A stretch of DNA of 64,000 nt from Deltaproteobacteria bacterium (lineage in GTDB: Bacteria; Bdellovibrionota_B; Oligoflexia; Oligoflexales; Bog-1112): the NCBI GenBank assembly GCA_016186945.1, contig JACPKR010000012.1:1-64000 (forward strand), given 5' to 3'. A program made the translations under genes and the position numbers. Under the pieces are notes generated by a model, which made no database searches, was not told the DNA's origin, and saw nothing but the letters and a program-made list of their open reading frames with translations. This document shows, piece by piece, positions 15,285 through 64,000 of this stretch; the first letter of the stretch is position 1; every line of letters starts with the position of its first letter.

Positions 15285-15350
15285 TTGGAGGAACCAGCTG
15301 CGCAGTTTCCTCCAAACCACCTCCTTGCCGCAAGCACCACCTCCTTGCAA
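15285..15350 (+). repeat. Partial MITE-like repeat (hairpin part only)
   Basis: Starts TTGGAGGAACCAGCTGCGCA and includes the TTTCCTCCAA arm, then ACCACCTCCTTGCCGCAAG and a second copy of CACCTCCTTGC. It matches the right half of the full element without the G-rich part or terminal repeats. It lies between flagellin and the MutS-like gene, just past the stop codon of the latter. Confidence 0.85.
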
Positions 15351-17138: not shown

Positions 17139-17252
17139 TTGGGGCAAGGAGGTGGTTTGGAGGAAACTGAGCAGCTGGTTCCTCCAAGAATTACCTTGAG
17201 GGAAACCATCTGCGAAGTTTTCCCTCAAACTCCCTTCCTTGCTATTGCCCCT
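17139..17252. repeat. MITE-like repeat pair: one reverse copy plus a diverged forward copy
   Basis: 17139-17190 reads TTGGGGCAAGGAGGTGGTTT then the GGAGGAA/TTCCTCC hairpin, in reverse orientation to the full elements. At 17196-17228 a second hairpin follows, TTGAGGGAAA...TTTTCCCTCAA, then ACTCCCTTCCTTGC. This is recognisably the same element with both stem arms changed together (GGAGGAA to GAGGGAA, TTCCTCC to TTCCCTC). It supplies false upstream codons to the MutS-like gene. Confidence 0.8.
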
Positions 17253-17329: not shown

Positions 17330-18559
17330 ATGCGTAAAATTGAACTCTTAAGCCCAGCAGGTAGTCTTTCCAAAATGAATGTCAGCTTTCGTTACGGTGC
17401 AGATGCTGTCTACATCGGTGGAAAAGCGTTCAATCTTCGAGCGCGGTCCAGCAACTTCTCCCAGGAAGATTTGCGCGAAGCTAGTTCCTTTGCCCACAAG
17501 TTGGGGAAAAAGGTCTACGTAGCTCTCAACATCCTCGCCCATGATCGTGAGATCAAGGCTCTGCCGCGCTTCGTTAAATTCCTTGAAGAGATCGGGATTG
17601 ACGCCGTGATTGTTGCTGATTTGGGAATACTGGACCTTGTACAGGAACATTCTCAGCTCCGCATCCACATCAGCACTCAGGCAAGCGCCACGAATTGGCG
17701 AAGTGTGAAAATGTACGAGCGTTTGGGAGCAAAGCGCGTGGTTCTGGCAAGGGAAGTGAGCATTCCCGAAATCAGGAAGATAAAAGATGCTGTACCGGAC
17801 ATGGAACTGGAAGTGTTCGTCCACGGGGCTATGTGTATGACCTACTCAGGTCGATGCAATCTCAGCCAGTATTTCAGTGAGCGAGATGGGAACCGTGGCG
17901 TTTGCTCCAACACATGCCGGTGGAAATACCACATTGTTGAGGAGAAACGGCCAGGCGAGTTTTTCCCTGTCTATGAAGATGAAACTGGGACCTACATTTA
18001 TAATTCCAAAGATCTTTGTTCGATAGAATTTCTGGATAAGCTTCTCGACGCCGGGGTCGACGGGTTGAAAATCGAAGGGCGTATGAAGAGCCACTATTAC
18101 TGTGCCAATGCCACAAAGATTTACAGGCAGGCTCTTGATAGTTACCTTTCTGGCACCTACACGTACGATCCCCAGTGGAGGAGGGAACTGGAAAAGATGA
18201 GCCACAGGGGTTACACAAGCGGCTTTTATTTGGGTAAGCTGGACAAGGAGTCTGAGCAACAGAAGGGTGAAACCTTCGCCTCCCATCACTTTGCAGGACT
18301 CGTGAGAGAGAAACTTTCCGAGACGGAATACCTGATGGAATCAAGGGAGCGTTTCGACTTAGCCAAGGATATAGAAATCCTGAGACCTTTTGGGCAGAAT
18401 GAACGCCATCGGATTTCAAGAGCAATCAATCAGAAGACAGGGGAAGAGGTGCAACTTGTACAACCGAATATGATGTTGAAGATTCAGGTGGAGGTACCAC
18501 TGGCGCCCTTTGATATTTTGACAACTGATCAGAAGTTAATCGACTCGCAGGCCCCTTAA
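17330..18559 (+). CDS. trhP: U32 family peptidase-like protein, TrhP/YegQ type
   Basis: 409 residues, ATG start. The N-terminus ELLSPAGSLSKMNVSFRYGA and the signature EVFVHGAMCMTYSGRCNLS identify peptidase family U32. The conserved cysteines of the 4Fe-4S site (Cys in HGAMCM, GRCNLS, NRGVCSNTCRW) are present. YegQ/TrhP acts in prephenate-dependent hydroxylation of U34 in tRNA. Length and the C-terminal SHRGYTSGFYLG-type segment fit TrhP better than the shorter UbiU/UbiV or longer RlhA. Its stop lies 1 base before the duplicated target site of a repeat insertion that separates it from the convergent HAD gene. Confidence 0.85.
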   Translation: MRKIELLSPAGSLSKMNVSFRYGADAVYIGGKAFNLRARSSNFSQEDLREASSFAHKLGKKVYVALNILAHDREIKALPRFVKFLEEIGIDAVIVADLGILDLVQEHSQLRIHISTQASATNWRSVKMYERLGAKRVVLAREVSIPEIRKIKDAVPDMELEVFVHGAMCMTYSGRCNLSQYFSERDGNRGVCSNTCRWKYHIVEEKRPGEFFPVYEDETGTYIYNSKDLCSIEFLDKLLDAGVDGLKIEGRMKSHYYCANATKIYRQALDSYLSGTYTYDPQWRRELEKMSHRGYTSGFYLGKLDKESEQQKGETFASHHFAGLVREKLSETEYLMESRERFDLAKDIEILRPFGQNERHRISRAINQKTGEEVQLVQPNMMLKIQVEVPLAPFDILTTDQKLIDSQAP

Positions 18560-18567
18560 GTTAGTTG

Positions 18568-18710
18568 GTAATGCGTAAGCCACTTGGGGCAAATAGGGAG
18601 AGGGGGGGTTGGGGGGGCGAGTGAAGCGTCGCCTCCCCCGATTTCATGGAGGAACCAGCTGCGCAGTTTCCTCCAAACCACCTCCTTGCCCCAAGTGGCT
18701 TACGCATTAC
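18568..18710 (+). mobile_element. Full-length MITE with 8-bp target duplication (copy 1)
   Basis: 143 bp bounded by perfect 25-bp inverted repeats that begin GTAATGCGTAAGCCACTTGG. The direct repeat GTTAGTTG flanks it at 18560-18567 and 18711-18718. Inside are G-runs, the GGAGGAAC/GTTTCCTCC hairpin and CCACCTCCTTGCC. IS66-family elements have ends starting GTAA and make 8-bp duplications, so this is probably an IS66-mobilised non-autonomous element. Insertion was into the tiny gap between two convergent genes; the duplicated bases include the HAD stop codon. Confidence 0.93.
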
Positions 18711-18711
18711 G

Positions 18712-19347
18712 TTAGTTGAATCGGGAGGGAAGGACACGGCAATCGAGGTGGGAAAGGCGTTCGTAGGCCTGGTAGCCGTCGGCGACAAGAATAACTTCGA
18801 CCCCCAAAGCCTTGCCGACTTCGTAATCGTACTCCGTGTCACCGACAATCACGGTTTTTTCCCTATCGGCGGCAGTTTTTTCCAGCAATTCGTGTCCCCG
18901 ATCTATTTTCCCCTCTGTTGGATAGGCGCGGCAGCCATATATATGGGAAACGTATTTGCCCAAGCCGAAGTGGTTGACATAGTTCTTGAGGTCGTTTTCT
19001 CGCGTTAGCGAAAGGACGGACAAGGTTTTCCCTTGGTTAGCGAGAGTTTCCAGCAAGGACTCGGTCCCTTTGTAGAGCCTGGTCTTATGAAATTTCTCCT
19101 CATAACTTTCGTGAAAATGCTGGCTGAGTTCAACCAAGCGTTGATGATCCATCTGAAAGCCCAACTTTGCATAGTAGTCTATAAGAGGGAAGCAAAACTC
19201 TCTTCGATAGTCTTCCAAACTTACCTGGGCTAGGCCCGCTGCATCCGTCTGCTCGCAAAGGATTTCTACTACGACCTCCAGGTCCTCGATGAGTGTCCCG
19301 TTCCAGTCCCAGATGACGTGGGTAAAAGATTTTAGCTCATTAAGCAT
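18712..19347 (-). CDS. HAD-superfamily phosphatase
   Basis: 211 residues. Motif I is WDWNGTLIED (nucleophile Asp in DWNGT, with Asn at the second acid position as in many subfamily members). Motif II is SVLSLT, motif III is the Lys in PTEGKIDRG, and motif IV is IVGDTEYDYEVG. The helical cap lies between residues 18 and 85. It looks like a phosphoglycolate-phosphatase-type enzyme acting on a small phosphorylated metabolite, but the substrate cannot be deduced. Its last codons overlap the target duplication of the adjacent MITE. Confidence 0.85.
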   Translation of the reverse strand: MLNELKSFTHVIWDWNGTLIEDLEVVVEILCEQTDAAGLAQVSLEDYRREFCFPLIDYYAKLGFQMDHQRLVELSQHFHESYEEKFHKTRLYKGTESLLETLANQGKTLSVLSLTRENDLKNYVNHFGLGKYVSHIYGCRAYPTEGKIDRGHELLEKTAADREKTVIVGDTEYDYEVGKALGVEVILVADGYQAYERLSHLDCRVLPSRFN

Positions 19348-27209: not shown

Positions 27210-27336
27210 AACCTTATTCCTATGCAGTGAGATTGAACCAAATAAAATTGGCAATTCGCAAATAATTTTAGAGAACTATAAGAGAATTATCCTCTCTTGT
27301 CCATTGACTTTGCGCAACGATTCATTAAAACAGTTC

Positions 27337-27482
27337 GTAATGCGTAAGCCACTTGGGGCAAATAGGGAGAGGGGGGTTTGGGGGGGCGAGGGAACCGTCG
27401 CTCCCCCAAGGGATCTCTTGGAGGAACCAGCTGCGCAGTTTCCTCCAAACCACCTCCTTGCCCCAAGTGGCTTACGCATTAC
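27337..27482 (+). mobile_element. Full-length MITE with perfect 8-bp target duplication (copy 2)
   Basis: 146 bp with perfect 25-bp inverted ends starting GTAATGCG. AACAGTTC flanks it on both sides (27329-27336 and 27483-27490). Removing the element and one duplication restores a continuous sequence leading into the cotH-like ribosome-binding site. The G tract runs GGGAGA, GGGGGG, TTT, GGGGGGG, CGA, GGG. This is the best reference copy. Confidence 0.95.
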
Positions 27483-27517
27483 AACAGTTCTCGCTAACCT
27501 TTCAAGGAGAATGCTCA

Positions 27518-33224: not shown

Positions 33225-33246
33225 CGTACGCTAAAAAGAAAGCTGC

Positions 33247-33340
33247 TTGTGGCAAGGAGGTGGTTTGGAGGAAACTGCGCAGCTGGTTCCTCCAAGAAAT
33301 CCGGGGGAGGCGACGCTTCCCTCTCCACCCCTCTCTATTT
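33247..33340 (-). repeat. Partial MITE, reverse orientation, between coaE and an unknown gene
   Basis: Starts TTGTGGCAAGGAGGTGGTTT, then the GGAGGAAACTGCGCAG hairpin and a shortened CCGGGGGAGGCGACGCTTCC region ending near CTATTT. Both terminal repeats are missing and the G/C tract is partly deleted, so this is a decayed copy. It lies upstream of coaE and probably in its leader. Confidence 0.85.
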
Positions 33341-39195: not shown

Positions 39196-39325
39196 CTTGG
39201 GGCAAAATAGGGAGAGGGGGGTTTGGGGGGGCGAGTGAAGCGTCGCCTCCCCCGGATTTCTTGGAGGAACCAGCTGCGCAGTTTCCTCCAAACCACCTCC
39301 TTGCCCCAAGTGGCTTACGGGTTAC
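39196..39325 (+). mobile_element. MITE truncated at its left end (copy 3)
   Basis: 130 bp. The left inverted repeat is cut to CTTGGGGCAA, starting right at the stop codon of the upstream gene. The right end is complete, with one changed triplet (CTTACGGGTTAC instead of CTTACGCATTAC). The G tract and hairpin are intact. No target duplication is visible, consistent with loss of the left end. Confidence 0.88.
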
Positions 39326-45714: not shown

Positions 45715-46505
45715 GCGATGAGCAAGGAAGGGAGGTAATGCGTAAGCCACTTAGCGCAAATAGGGAGAGGGGGGTTTGGGGGGGCGAGGGAACCGTCGCT
45801 CCCCCAAGGGATTTCTTGGAGGAACCAGCTGCGCAGTTTCCTCCAAACCACCTCCTTGCCCCAAGTGGCTTACGCATTACGGAAGGGAGCAGCCCTCTTC
45901 TCAGGTTCCTCCGAAGCAGATCCTTGCCGCGAGTGGGCTACACGCTTCATCCCAAAAAAGATAGAGTTGCCAAACTTATCAGGGCCATCTTGCCTCATCC
46001 TCTTCCTCAACGATTGAGTTTGGACCTTTTTTTTGTCATTCAGCTTTTAGTGTTTCAGGATTTTGTGCTTCCGCAGATGATGGGGCATTTTTTTTTCGTT
46101 GACTTACTGAGTCCCTGGTTGCTTGTTATATGTGTGTTCGGCCACTGGGGGCGGGTGCTTCCTGTCTTTTTATTTGCGATCGTTCTTTTGGAATCACACG
46201 CATCGGCTCCGATCGGTCTGTTTTTTTGCTTCTATTGGATGATTGGTGTTTTACTCTTTTCGTTTCGCCACCATATTTCATGGCAAAACATGGCTCCCTG
46301 GCTTGCAGCTTTTTTCCTCAGCCAGGTTTTATTGGTGGTTCTCGAATATCTTGCGAGTGTGTCCGGGGGGGCTGTACTACCATTTGTGGATCGCCAGTCT
46401 TGGTTTACCCTTGTAGCACGAGTTTTGAGTACGACAGCGCTGGGAGCGGTGCTTGTTTGGCGTTTTGGCCTTCTCCACTGGCAGGAGCTTGCCCGTGCTA
46501 GGTAG
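45711..46505 (+). CDS. mreD: Rod-shape determining protein MreD, 5' end disrupted by a MITE
   Basis: The frame opens at ATG 45711 (overlapping the mreC stop) and runs 264 residues. Its first ~75 residues come from a MITE and an older repeat relic. The MreD part starts at about residue 90 (LPHPLPQRLSLDLFFVIQLL) and has five membrane helices (VVLEYLASVSGG and others). MreD is a small inner-membrane partner of MreC. No ATG lies near the true N-terminus; TTG codons at 45990, 46014 and 46020 are possible starts. Either the MITE encodes an N-terminal extension or translation begins at one of these. The 3' end overlaps mrdA by 11 nt. Confidence 0.75.
   Translation: MSDEQGREVMRKPLSANRERGVWGGEGTVAPPRDFLEEPAAQFPPNHLLAPSGLRITEGSSPLLRFLRSRSLPRVGYTLHPKKDRVAKLIRAILPHPLPQRLSLDLFFVIQLLVFQDFVLPQMMGHFFFVDLLSPWLLVICVFGHWGRVLPVFLFAIVLLESHASAPIGLFFCFYWMIGVLLFSFRHHISWQNMAPWLAAFFLSQVLLVVLEYLASVSGGAVLPFVDRQSWFTLVARVLSTTALGAVLVWRFGLLHWQELARAR
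45735..45880 (+). mobile_element. Full-length MITE inside the mreC-mreD junction (copy 4)
   Basis: 146 bp, right inverted repeat complete, left one with two mismatches (CTTAGCGCAA). GGAAGGGAG flanks it on both sides (45726-45734 and 45881-45889), a 9-bp duplication or 8 bp plus a chance match. It lies within the transcribed mre operon, downstream of the mreC stop, and is stop-free in the mreD frame. Its G tract, hairpin and anti-Shine-Dalgarno-like CACCTCCTT are therefore in the mRNA. Confidence 0.93.
45899..45950 (+). repeat. Decayed older copy of the same repeat
   Basis: CAGGTTCCTCCGAAGCAGAT, then CCTTGCCGCGAGTGGGCTAC and ACGCTTC, aligns with the right half of the MITE (CAGTTTCCTCC, CACCTCCTTGCCCCAAGTGG, CTTACGCATTAC) at perhaps 75 percent identity. 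So this spot was hit at least twice, with the intact copy inserted next to an old one. Confidence 0.65.
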
Positions 46506-50002: not shown

Positions 50003-50380
50003 ATGGCACATATCGGTGATCTTGTCCCCAAGTCGGGGATTTATACCGAACCTGGCGTCATCGTCGAAAAGAAGGAAGACGGAACGGCTGTAGTCGACAC
50101 AGAACCGCTTGAGATTCATAAATACCACCGCTACAGCAACACGACGGGCCTGAATCAAGAAGAAAAGATGCAATTTAACGCGATCCTCGATGAAATCTAC
50201 AAAACCGACAACGGGGTGGAACGACTGAACGAGATTCAACAGCAGATCGACCGGCTACGCCTCGAACCGCAGAATAAAAATATCGTCCGCTACCTTCGCA
50301 ACCAGCAATCGATCCTCATCCGCGAAGTGAAAACCCTCCCCCGCTACTACACACAAGATACCGACCGTTTAAATGTTTAG
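50003..50380 (+). CDS. Hypothetical helical protein, paralogue of the previous gene
   Basis: 125 residues, ATG with AAAGGAGG upstream, 19 nt after its paralogue. The N-terminus (GDLVPKSGIYTEPGVIVEKK) is different from the paralogue's, but the C-terminal half is related: FNAILDEIYKT, LNEIQQQIDRLRLE, NIVRYLRNQQSILIREV. The last 59 bases of this region (50310-50368) are duplicated at 50973-51032, so a recombination has copied the 3' end downstream of the toxin-antitoxin segment. Function unknown. Confidence 0.7.
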   Translation: MAHIGDLVPKSGIYTEPGVIVEKKEDGTAVVDTEPLEIHKYHRYSNTTGLNQEEKMQFNAILDEIYKTDNGVERLNEIQQQIDRLRLEPQNKNIVRYLRNQQSILIREVKTLPRYYTQDTDRLNV

Positions 50381-50384
50381 CCAA

Positions 50385-50448
50385 TTGTGGCAAGGAGGTG
50401 GTTTGGAGGAAACTGCGCAGCATTTGCCGCAAGTGGCTTACGCATTAG
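50385..50448 (-). repeat. Internally deleted MITE, reverse orientation
   Basis: 64 bp: TTGTGGCAAGGAGGTGGTTT, GGAGGAAACTGCGCAG, then directly the terminal repeat TTGCCGCAAGTGGCTTACGC and ATTAG. The central G-rich part and one hairpin arm are deleted. It lies between the paralogous pair and the antitoxin gene, in the antitoxin's upstream region. Confidence 0.85.
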
Positions 50449-51046: not shown

Positions 51047-51186
51047 GTAATGCGTAAGCCACTTGGGGCAAGGAGGTGGTTTGGAGGAAACTGCGCAGCT
51101 GGTTCCTCCAAGAAATGCCTTTGGGGGAGCGACGGTTCCTTCGCCCCCCCAACCCCCCCTCTCCCTATTTGCCCCAAGTGGCTTAG
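51047..51186 (-). mobile_element. Near-full-length MITE in reverse orientation (copy 5)
   Basis: 140 bp. It begins with the complete terminal repeat GTAATGCGTAAGCCACTTGG, then the hairpin and the C-rich complement of the G tract, and ends GCCCCAAGTGGCTTA; the last seven bases of the right repeat are missing. No target duplication is visible. It separates the truncated vapC from the fused antitoxin gene. Confidence 0.92.
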
Positions 51187-53634: not shown

Positions 53635-53715
53635 GGACGTCCCCTATTTCAGATTTTGGAATTCTTGCTAATAGTCTAACACATTTTTCTTTTTTGGTAG
53701 CAATGGACTCTGGCT

Positions 53716-53790
53716 TTCTTGGAGGAACCAGCTGCGCAGTTTCCTCCAAACCACCTCCTTGCAGGGAGGCCAAACCACCTCCTTGCCGCA
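53716..53790 (+). repeat. Partial MITE hairpin upstream of a toxin-antitoxin pair
   Basis: TTTCTTGGAGGAACCAGCTG, TTTCCTCCAA, CCACCTCCTTGCAGGGAGGC and a second ACCACCTCCTTGCCGCA. It has the hairpin and the anti-Shine-Dalgarno-like part twice, without G tract or terminal repeats. It lies between the divergent lipoprotein and antitoxin genes and probably in both leaders. Confidence 0.85.
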
Positions 53791-53842
53791 CATCTGTATA
53801 CGTATTACAATTACACATGAGTAATGATGGAGATAAAACGCG

Positions 53843-60684: not shown

Positions 60685-60697
60685 AGAACCTCTCTTC

Positions 60698-60823
60698 GTA
60701 AGCCACTTGGGGCAAATAGGGAGAGGGGGGTTTGGGGGGGCGAGGGAACCGTCGCCTCCCCCAAGGGATTTCTTGGAGGAACCAGCTGCGCAGTTTCCTC
60801 CAAACCACCTCCTTGCCCCAAGT
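60698..60823 (+). mobile_element. MITE immediately upstream of fliM (copy 6, shortened ends)
   Basis: 126 bp from GTAAGCCACTTGGGGCAA to TTGCCCCAAGT. The outer seven bases of the left repeat and fourteen of the right are absent. CTCTCTTC (60690-60697) and CTCTCTTT (60824-60831) flank it, a 7-of-8 match consistent with a target duplication of a shorter variant. The left end again begins GTAA. In the fliM mRNA it reads AAGGAGGTGG upstream of the true start. Confidence 0.85.
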
Positions 60824-62887: not shown

Positions 62888-63093
<206 letters not shown>

Positions 63094-64000
63094 TCACCCC
63101 CCAATCTGGTACATATCTTGCTGGATATCGGGAAGGCGCGCACGCGGTTTCATGTGGAGAACCTGTTGTAGCAACGGTAGATAGTCGTCCTTCAGCACGC
63201 CGCGCAGGTTCACCCCTTTTTCAGCCATCAGACAGGCGCGCAAGAAGCCGTCAGCAGAGAGTCGCCAGCGTGAACATGAGCCACAGAAGGGTCGGCTTTC
63301 CGATGCGATGAAGCCTATCCGTGCGCCGTTGGCGAGTTTGAAGTTGAAAGAGGTCGAGTCGTTTTCCGCCAACTCAGGAGCAAGAGAGAAGCTTTCTTGC
63401 AAACGAGCAACGAGTGTTCCTGCGTCCATAAAACGTGCGGTTTGCCATTTACATGCCTGCCCGATTTTCATTAGCTCAAGGAAGCGGACTGCGATTCCGT
63501 GCTCACTGGAGAAGGCGACGAAGTCGAGGAGTTCGTCGTCGTTCACTCCTTTCATAAGAACGACATTTAACTTCACGTTAAAACCAAGTTCCTGAGCTTG
63601 AAGGATGGACGATCTAACTTGCTTGAACACACTCGTTCGGGTGATTTTATGAAAGCGTTCCTCGTTCAAGCTATCCAGGCTTATGTTGATATGTTGGCAA
63701 CGGGTATCTTTCAAGAAGGGTAAGTGTTTTGCGAGTAGAAATCCGTTTGTGGTCAGCCCGAGTTTTGTGACAGGAAGTTTCGACAGACGTGTCACGATGT
63801 CACGAAAATCGCGGCGAAAGGTCGGTTCCCCGCCAGTCAGCCGAACTTGCTCGATGCCAAACTGGACAAGGTTTTGACAGATGGACTCTATCTCGTCAGG
63901 GCGCAACCATTTCGCAGCAGGCATGAACTTGACATTCACCGGCATGCAGTAGAAACAACGGAAATTACAGGCGTCCAGGAGAGACACCCGAAGTTTTCGT
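63094..64000 (-). CDS. moaA: GTP 3',8-cyclase MoaA (5' end outside the window)
   Basis: About 300 residues visible; the frame is still open at the window edge, with KLRVSLLDACNFRC near the start, so some N-terminal residues are missing. The N-terminal radical-SAM cluster is CNFRCFYC (CxxxCxxC). The LTGGEPTFRRDF and ISLDSL motifs follow. The C-terminal second cluster is in FCGSCSRWRLSADGFLRACL, and the protein ends in GG as MoaA should. It makes the first intermediate of molybdenum cofactor. The stop codon lies at the edge of a repeat copy. Confidence 0.93.
   Translation of the reverse strand, partial: RKLRVSLLDACNFRCFYCMPVNVKFMPAAKWLRPDEIESICQNLVQFGIEQVRLTGGEPTFRRDFRDIVTRLSKLPVTKLGLTTNGFLLAKHLPFLKDTRCQHINISLDSLNEERFHKITRTSVFKQVRSSILQAQELGFNVKLNVVLMKGVNDDELLDFVAFSSEHGIAVRFLELMKIGQACKWQTARFMDAGTLVARLQESFSLAPELAENDSTSFNFKLANGARIGFIASESRPFCGSCSRWRLSADGFLRACLMAEKGVNLRGVLKDDYLPLLQQVLHMKPRARLPDIQQDMYQIGG

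What the first reader, a model, noticed from the sequence alone, without database searches (positions are those of the whole stretch)
18560..18718. IS66-like MITE family with clean 8-bp target duplications
Seen: about a dozen copies share 25-bp terminal inverted repeats beginning GTAA around a 143-146 bp body. Copy 18568-18710 is flanked by GTTAGTTG on both sides and copy 27337-27482 by AACAGTTC on both sides. Established: IS66-family elements have ends starting GTAA and produce 8-bp duplications. Inference: this is a non-autonomous IS66-mobilised element, still recently active (perfect ends and duplications). Copy 1 entered the 1-2 base gap between two convergent genes and duplicated the HAD stop codon.
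Basis: partly seen in the sequence, partly recalled or inferred. Interest (0 to 1): 0.85.

Follow-up and report, generated by a model that had tools for sequence, protein, structure and literature searches.

The report
REP-containing MITE invaded by IS110-like element
A very abundant 146-base mobile DNA hairpin (about 2-3% of this bacterium's DNA) has spread with clean 8- or 9-base target duplications and has itself become the fixed landing site of a second jumping element of the IS110 type, while the enzyme that moves the hairpin is not found in the assembly.

Summary
The 146-bp element at 18568-18710, 27337-27482 and 45735-45880 has 25-bp inverted ends (GTAATGCGTAAGCCACTTGGGGCAA) and 8/8/9-bp target duplications. 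Genome-wide there are 221 such ends (<=3 mismatches). Of 41 sampled copies with both ends complete, 26 have an exact 8-9 bp duplication and 4 a near one; about 0.1 are expected from re-paired flanks. A scan that knew only 'GTAA...TTAC between 8-bp duplicates' returned 19 elements, all 143-147 bp and of this family. So it is a true, recently active MITE.

The IS66 label is only partly supported: tip and duplication length fit, but the assembly has no IS66 transposase, IS66 elements of the same family have other ends, and among 149 contig ends only copies broken by another element carry these ends.

Two things were missed. One hairpin is an older REP-like repeat, dispersed alone here (411 core matches) and in two relatives (95, 124) that lack the ends. 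And an IS110-like element sits at one fixed dinucleotide of the MITE in at least 8 copies (8 left, 6 right junctions); two junction pairs are rejoined by the MITE's own duplications. About half of the youngest copies have one nibbled end and no duplication, unexplained.

The parts
18568..18710 (+). complete MITE copy (143 bp) between convergent U32 peptidase and HAD genes
18560..18567 (.). target duplication GTTAGTTG, left copy
18711..18718 (.). target duplication GTTAGTTG, right copy (contains the HAD stop codon)
27337..27482 (+). complete MITE copy (146 bp), perfect 25-bp ends
27329..27336 (.). target duplication AACAGTTC, left copy
27483..27490 (.). target duplication AACAGTTC, right copy
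27384..27396 (+). intact site GGGCGAGGGAACC used by the IS110-like element in other copies (dinucleotide AG at 27389-27390)
   Evidence: junctions
27417..27461 (+). REP-like hairpin TTGGAGGAACCAGCTGCGCAGTTTCCTCCAA plus conserved ACCACCTCCTTGC tail
45735..45880 (+). complete MITE copy (146 bp)
45726..45734 (.). 9-bp target duplication GGAAGGGAG, left copy
45881..45889 (.). 9-bp target duplication GGAAGGGAG, right copy
51047..51185 (-). MITE copy, right end complete, left end cut by 8 bp, no duplication
60697..60823 (+). MITE copy with both ends cut (6 and 14 bp) but flanked by CTCTCTT on both sides
39196..39325 (+). MITE copy, left end cut
33240..33331 (-). partial copy (element positions 44-137)
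17139..17203 (-). partial copy (right arm)
15285..15334 (+). solo REP-like hairpin
50379..50447 (-). rearranged copy: both arms, middle deleted
53712..53808 (+). solo REP-like hairpin plus a second partial arm
62901..63102 (-). cluster of three REP-like hairpin pieces, one interrupted by a long G/C homopolymer

Best explanation
A family of non-autonomous DNA transposons (MITEs). Each 146-bp unit is two 25-bp inverted ends (GTAATGCGTAAGCCACTTGGGGCAA) around two hairpins; the right-hand hairpin is a REP-like repeat that exists independently and is probably older than the MITE. SHOWN: ends, 8- or 9-bp target duplications, hundreds of copies, near-identity of the youngest copies, a unit too short to encode a transposase, and at least 8 copies invaded, always at the same dinucleotide (GGGCG^AG^GGAACC of the left hairpin), by a multicopy element whose protein start is IS110-like. 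INFERRED: a DDE transposase supplied in trans cuts at the ends and makes staggered 8-9 bp cuts at the target; its most likely family is IS66 (about 50%); that transposase is absent from the assembly (lost, or in the missing part). INFERRED: the IS110-like element is a site-specific, probably RNA-guided recombinase that uses the MITE hairpin as a safe, multicopy target, as IS621 uses REP elements. INFERRED: copies with one nibbled end and no duplication are products of single-end cleavage followed by end joining, or of aborted insertion.
For: Ends and duplications: (41 both-end copies: 20 exact 8-bp, 6 exact 9-bp, 4 near, 11 none; about 0.1 repeats of 8 bp or more expected per set from re-paired flanks). 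De novo scan returns only 143-147 bp members. Copy number; 2.6% of 224 kb sampled. Confined to this genome among 56 searched. Mostly between genes: 38 of 44 classified pieces, although about 89% of the DNA is coding. The whole element folds as one long hairpin, z about -10 on either strand. REP-like core shared with G005 and G007, with compensatory stem changes. IS110-like occupant: 8 left and 6 right junctions, identical insertion point and AG duplication; MRVSYQGKTVNVGIDVHK aligns with the start of a G011 protein that hits PF01548 (62% over 21 columns); contig ends C46/C30 and C59/C16 rejoin through the MITE's 8-bp duplications GGGTGGAA and GAAGGGCC, C22/C76 7 of 8, so the MITE came first and the IS110-like element second.
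Against: No transposase with these ends was found: PF03050 none; every 19-bp end match tested for a third type of interior continues as a MITE arm. IS66 ends in the literature start GTAAGCG, not GTAATGCG. About half (14 of 26) of the copies at 98% identity or more have a cut end, and 3 of the 12 such copies with both ends lack duplications, which a plain cut-and-paste story does not predict. Only about 19 residues of the IS110-like protein are visible, because its interior is missing from the assembly; no bridge RNA was identified.
Confidence: 0.8

Rival explanations
1. The MITE is moved by a DDE transposase of another family that makes 8-9 bp duplications (for example IS1, IS256 or IS1595), not IS66.
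For: 9-bp duplications occur in 6 of 26 exact cases; no IS66 transposase in the assembly; the end reads GTAATGCG, not GTAAGCG.
Against: From general knowledge of these families, none has GTAA tips (IS1 GGT.., IS256 and IS1595 G/GG..); GTAA + 8 bp is the IS66 signature. IS66 elements with GTAAGCG ends exist in the same family, G005. Those other families were not searched for in this genome.
Confidence: 0.4
2. It is a REP/BIME system moved by a REP-associated tyrosine transposase (RAYT).
For: The inner hairpin is REP-like: hundreds of dispersed copies, solo and paired, mostly between genes; Y1 transposases exist in this genome and in G005 and G007.
Against: Transposition by Y1 enzymes makes no target duplications (general knowledge), whereas the 146-bp unit does. 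At the Y1 loci examined in G005, G007 and at two of three in this genome the hairpin is absent or below recognition within about 1.5 kb; the third (C76) has one only as part of a MITE. It can still apply to the solo hairpins.
Confidence: 0.07
3. The IS110-like element is the mobiliser, and the MITE is its internal-deletion derivative.
For: In the interrupted copies the IS110-like element lies inside the MITE ends.
Against: MITEs without the element have their own 8-bp duplications and an uninterrupted GGGCGAGGGAACC; the interrupted copies show a 2-bp AG duplication at a constant site inside MITEs of differing states, some already truncated (C49, C64, C73). No apparent direct repeat was seen at an IS110 insertion in PMC11946415.
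Confidence: 0.03
4. The repeats serve mainly as bidirectional terminators or another RNA/DNA structure under selection, and mobility is incidental.
For: Very stable hairpin; conserved hairpin across three genera with covariation; G007 copies flanked by T and A runs at gene ends.
Against: Pieces are spread over convergent, tandem and divergent gaps in proportion to gap length (6/19/13 pieces against 3.0/11.3/8.1 kb), with no bias to convergent gaps; the MITE has no T run.
Confidence: 0.1

Closest known systems
IS66 family (ends 20-30 bp starting GTAAGCG, 8-bp duplications; PMC11946415, PMC3281130)
   Same: GTAA tip, 25-bp inverted ends, 8-bp duplications
   Different: tip reads GTAATGCG; 6 of 26 exact duplications are 9 bp; no tnpA/B/C in the element, no PF03050 in the genome; IS66 elements of relatives have other ends
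MITECca01 of Cardinium (169 copies, 3.5% of the chromosome; PMC9769881)
   Same: one MITE dominating a genome at similar density, mostly between genes
   Different: that MITE has a known IS982 parent still present; here no parent is found; here a REP-like hairpin and an IS110-like occupant
IS621, ISPpu9, ISPpu10 and other elements inserting into REP sequences (PMC1525189, PMC11208160)
   Same: an element always inserted at one position of a dispersed palindrome; dinucleotide core as in IS621
   Different: the target hairpin is part of a transposable MITE with its own duplications, and the site is the left, non-REP hairpin
Elements with subterminal inverted repeats that target Tn21-family terminal inverted repeats (J. 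Bacteriol. 185:6371, title as cited in PMC11208160)
   Same: an IS110/IS1111-type element parasitising a fixed site of another transposon family
   Different: there the target is the transposon end; here an inner hairpin of a MITE
REP/BIME and RAYT systems (PMC2817692)
   Same: the inner hairpin: hundreds of copies, solo or in inverted pairs
   Different: no associated Y1 transposase found next to it; the composite unit makes target duplications

Membership tests
MITE (non-autonomous DNA transposon) | short, no transposase gene, terminal inverted repeats | tested here: met
   143-147 bp, 25-bp ends
MITE (non-autonomous DNA transposon) | target-site duplications | tested here: met
   26 of 41 exact 8-9 bp; control about 0.1
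MITE (non-autonomous DNA transposon) | autonomous partner with the same ends (usual but not required) | tested here: inconclusive
   none found: no third type of end in the assembly or at 149 contig ends; assembly only 91% complete
IS66-derived | ends starting GTAA (typically GTAAGCG) | tested here: inconclusive
   GTAA met, GTAAGCG not (GTAATGCG)
IS66-derived | 8-bp duplications | tested here: met
   20 of 26 exact duplications are 8 bp, 6 are 9 bp
IS66-derived | IS66 transposase (PF03050) with the same ends in the genome or relatives | tested here: not met
   0 in G000; G001 and G005 elements have other ends
REP/RAYT | dispersed short hairpin, over 100 copies, mostly extragenic | tested here: met
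   inner hairpin: 411 core matches here, 95 in G005, 124 in G007
REP/RAYT | Y1 transposase gene flanked by the REP | tested here: not met
   no close core at the Y1 loci examined except inside a MITE on C76
IS110 family (occupant) | DEDD recombinase (PF01548/PF02371) | tested here: inconclusive
   only the first ~19 residues visible; they match the start of a PF01548 protein of G011
IS110 family (occupant) | insertion at one fixed sequence with a short core | tested here: met
   14 of 14 MITE junctions at GGGCG^AG^GGAACC, AG on both sides
IS110 family (occupant) | bridge or seek RNA in the non-coding ends | tested here: inconclusive
   only short chance-like pairings of end sequences with the target; interior missing

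The most novel reading that the evidence does not exclude
A co-adapted two-layer system: a MITE amplifies and spreads, mostly between genes, the hairpin target of an RNA-guided IS110-type recombinase, which thereby gains hundreds of safe landing sites, while the MITE itself moves by an end chemistry that often leaves one end nibbled.
Probability: 0.25. Interest if true: 0.6.

Novelty: new variant of a known kind. Interest (0 to 1): 0.42.

Why it matters
It gives a clean natural case of one mobile element building the target of another: a MITE at 2-3% of a genome with readable insertion history, a REP-like hairpin captured inside a transposable unit, and an IS110-type element that always enters at the same base pair. 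It could help explain how REP-like repeats spread without their own enzyme, and supplies a new natural target for IS110 bridge-RNA work. The MITE by itself would be an ordinary, if abundant, member of a known kind.

Tried and rejected
TIR pattern in GTDB contigs: no exact match. In IMG/VR one match, a chance hit inside a coding gene of an unrelated contig. 146-mer against plasmids: only weak G-rich matches in Paracoccus. Occupant's left end against plasmids and a degenerate pattern for its N-terminus in IMG/VR: nothing. Rfam on the window: one tRNA only. HAD next to the peptidase in relatives: no hit, so no empty site could be shown for copy 1; the peptidase was not found in the seven same-family genomes. 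Guide-like pairing between the occupant's ends and its target: nothing convincing. The idea that the MITE is a terminator array is not supported by gap orientation. The host could not be named beyond best peptidase matches in records labelled Pseudomonadota/proteobacterium.

Full report
OBSERVATION. A third complete copy, 45735-45880, has a 9-bp duplication. The rest of the window's 'dozen' are damaged copies or fragments, mostly of the inner hairpin. Copy 1 lies between the stop codons of a U32 peptidase (stop 18557-18559) and a HAD phosphatase-like gene (stop 18712-18714 on the minus strand), which would be one base apart without it.

GENOME SCALE. The window is contig C20 of a 2.66-Mb, 76-contig, 91%-complete assembly. 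The 24-bp end occurs 221 times within 3 mismatches, 0 times when read backwards. In 55 relatives the 18-bp end core (up to 1 mismatch) is absent. In 224 kb (window plus eight 20-kb stretches, some chosen because they held copies) family DNA makes up 2.6%, and 2.2% of the window alone. A scan that used no element sequence, only GTAA...TTAC flanked by an identical 8-mer within 4 kb, found 19 elements, every one 143-147 bp and carrying the inner hairpin; nine other tetramers, run on the 224 kb where GTAA gives 5, gave 0-4 hits of irregular length. Of 41 distinct copies with both ends complete, 20 have an exact 8-bp duplication, 6 an exact 9-bp one, 4 a near one, 11 none. Re-pairing left and right flanks among the 90 long copies gives about 0.1-0.2 repeats of 8 bp or more per set, against 30 observed. 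The best copies are 98-99% identical over the full length. The sampled copies came mainly from places with a well-preserved end, so the proportions describe well-preserved copies.

ANATOMY. The unit folds as one long hairpin with two inner hairpins, z about -10 on either strand. The right inner hairpin, TTGGAGGAACCAGCTGCGCAGTTTCCTCCAA followed by ACCACCTCCTTGC, is an independent repeat: 411 matches here, 95 in G005, 124 in G007, which lack the MITE ends, and a single match in the 53 other genomes. In those relatives the stem reads GGGG/CCCC instead of GGAGG/CCTCC; four of nine pairs show changes on both sides and the covariation score exceeds all shuffles and slid controls (small, related sample). 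So the MITE is a composite: transposon ends around a REP-like hairpin. No Y1 (RAYT) gene was found flanked by the hairpin.

WHO MOVES IT. GTAA tips and 8-bp duplications are IS66 traits (PMC11946415, PMC3281130); an 8-9 bp range for IS66 is my recollection of the ISfinder table. But PF03050 is absent from the assembly. IS66 elements in the same family have ends GTAAGCGCTTAGGAAACC (G005) or GTGTCCTTTCC (G001). Searches for a perfect 19-bp end followed by bases that neither MITE arm has found only two places, both MITE copies. Because multicopy elements collapse, I surveyed 149 of 152 contig ends: 88 fall into repeat-boundary clusters with several other insertion-sequence tips, but none carries the MITE ends except MITE copies, nearly all of them the interrupted ones described next. 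IS66 in trans is therefore an inference at about 50%, not a shown fact.

THE OCCUPANT. The survey exposed a second element. Eight contig ends (C2, C19, C22, C46, C49, C59, C64, C73) run from a MITE left arm ...GGGGGGGCGAG into TTACTATGTTGAATAGTAGTAGCG..., and six (C16, C30, C48, C66, C70, C76) run from ...GGGATATTCACATAACAG into GGAACCGTCGC... of a MITE right arm. Every junction is at the same place, GGGCG^AG^GGAACC, with AG on both sides. The left part opens a reading frame MRVSYQGKTVNVGIDVHK..., which aligns with the start of a G011 protein that hits PF01548, DEDD_Tnp_IS110 (62% over 21 columns). Two pairs of contig ends can be matched through the MITE's own 8-bp duplications, C46/C30 by GGGTGGAA and C59/C16 by GAAGGGCC; a third, C22/C76, matches in 7 of 8. 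So the MITE landed first and the IS110-like element entered it later. IS110-family elements that enter REP palindromes are known (PMC1525189, PMC11208160). That this one is RNA-guided is inference; its interior is not in the assembly and no guide could be identified.

UNEXPLAINED. Among 26 copies at 98% identity or more, 10 have only the right end cut, 3 only the left, 1 both, within the last 30 bp and nearly always with no duplication. Later decay would not be expected to concentrate in the terminal bases of otherwise near-perfect copies, although the sampling favoured copies with one good end. Single-end cleavage with end joining, or aborted insertion, would do it; neither was tested. A few cut copies still have direct repeats (60697-60823 with CTCTCTT; L035; L237).

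VERDICT.

Noticed in passing
L105 (G000:C76 start) 18-126: Two IS110-like right ends in tandem, the first joined at CATAAC^AG^GTTGTTG: the element seems to have entered its own kind at an AG resembling its junction.
   Followed up: partly
window 62932-62963: A run of about 30 C (G on the other strand) inside a REP-like hairpin copy; may be an assembly artefact.
   Followed up: no
G007 loci L111-L116: About 290-500 bp elements bounded by inverted REP-like hairpins with further nested inverted repeats inside, at gene ends with T and A runs outside.
   Followed up: partly
L118 (G005:C69): Tandem array of TGTTCCACGTGGAACA (parS-like) units, some carrying the REP-like hairpin.
   Followed up: no
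G000 contig ends: Several other collapsed insertion sequences, tips such as TGAACCTATCTCACTAAA, ACTGATGTTACGCAC, ACTAGGGCGTGTCGTCAAATT and TATAGTGGACCCC.
   Followed up: no
window 51603 and 51656: A second palindromic repeat (CCGCGGTCAAGCCGCGGG type), also found at several contig ends.
   Followed up: no
L122 (G000:C16:56669-56745) and L120 (C23:18222-18298): Very short versions, about 77 bp, with both ends facing inward and most of the body missing.
   Followed up: no
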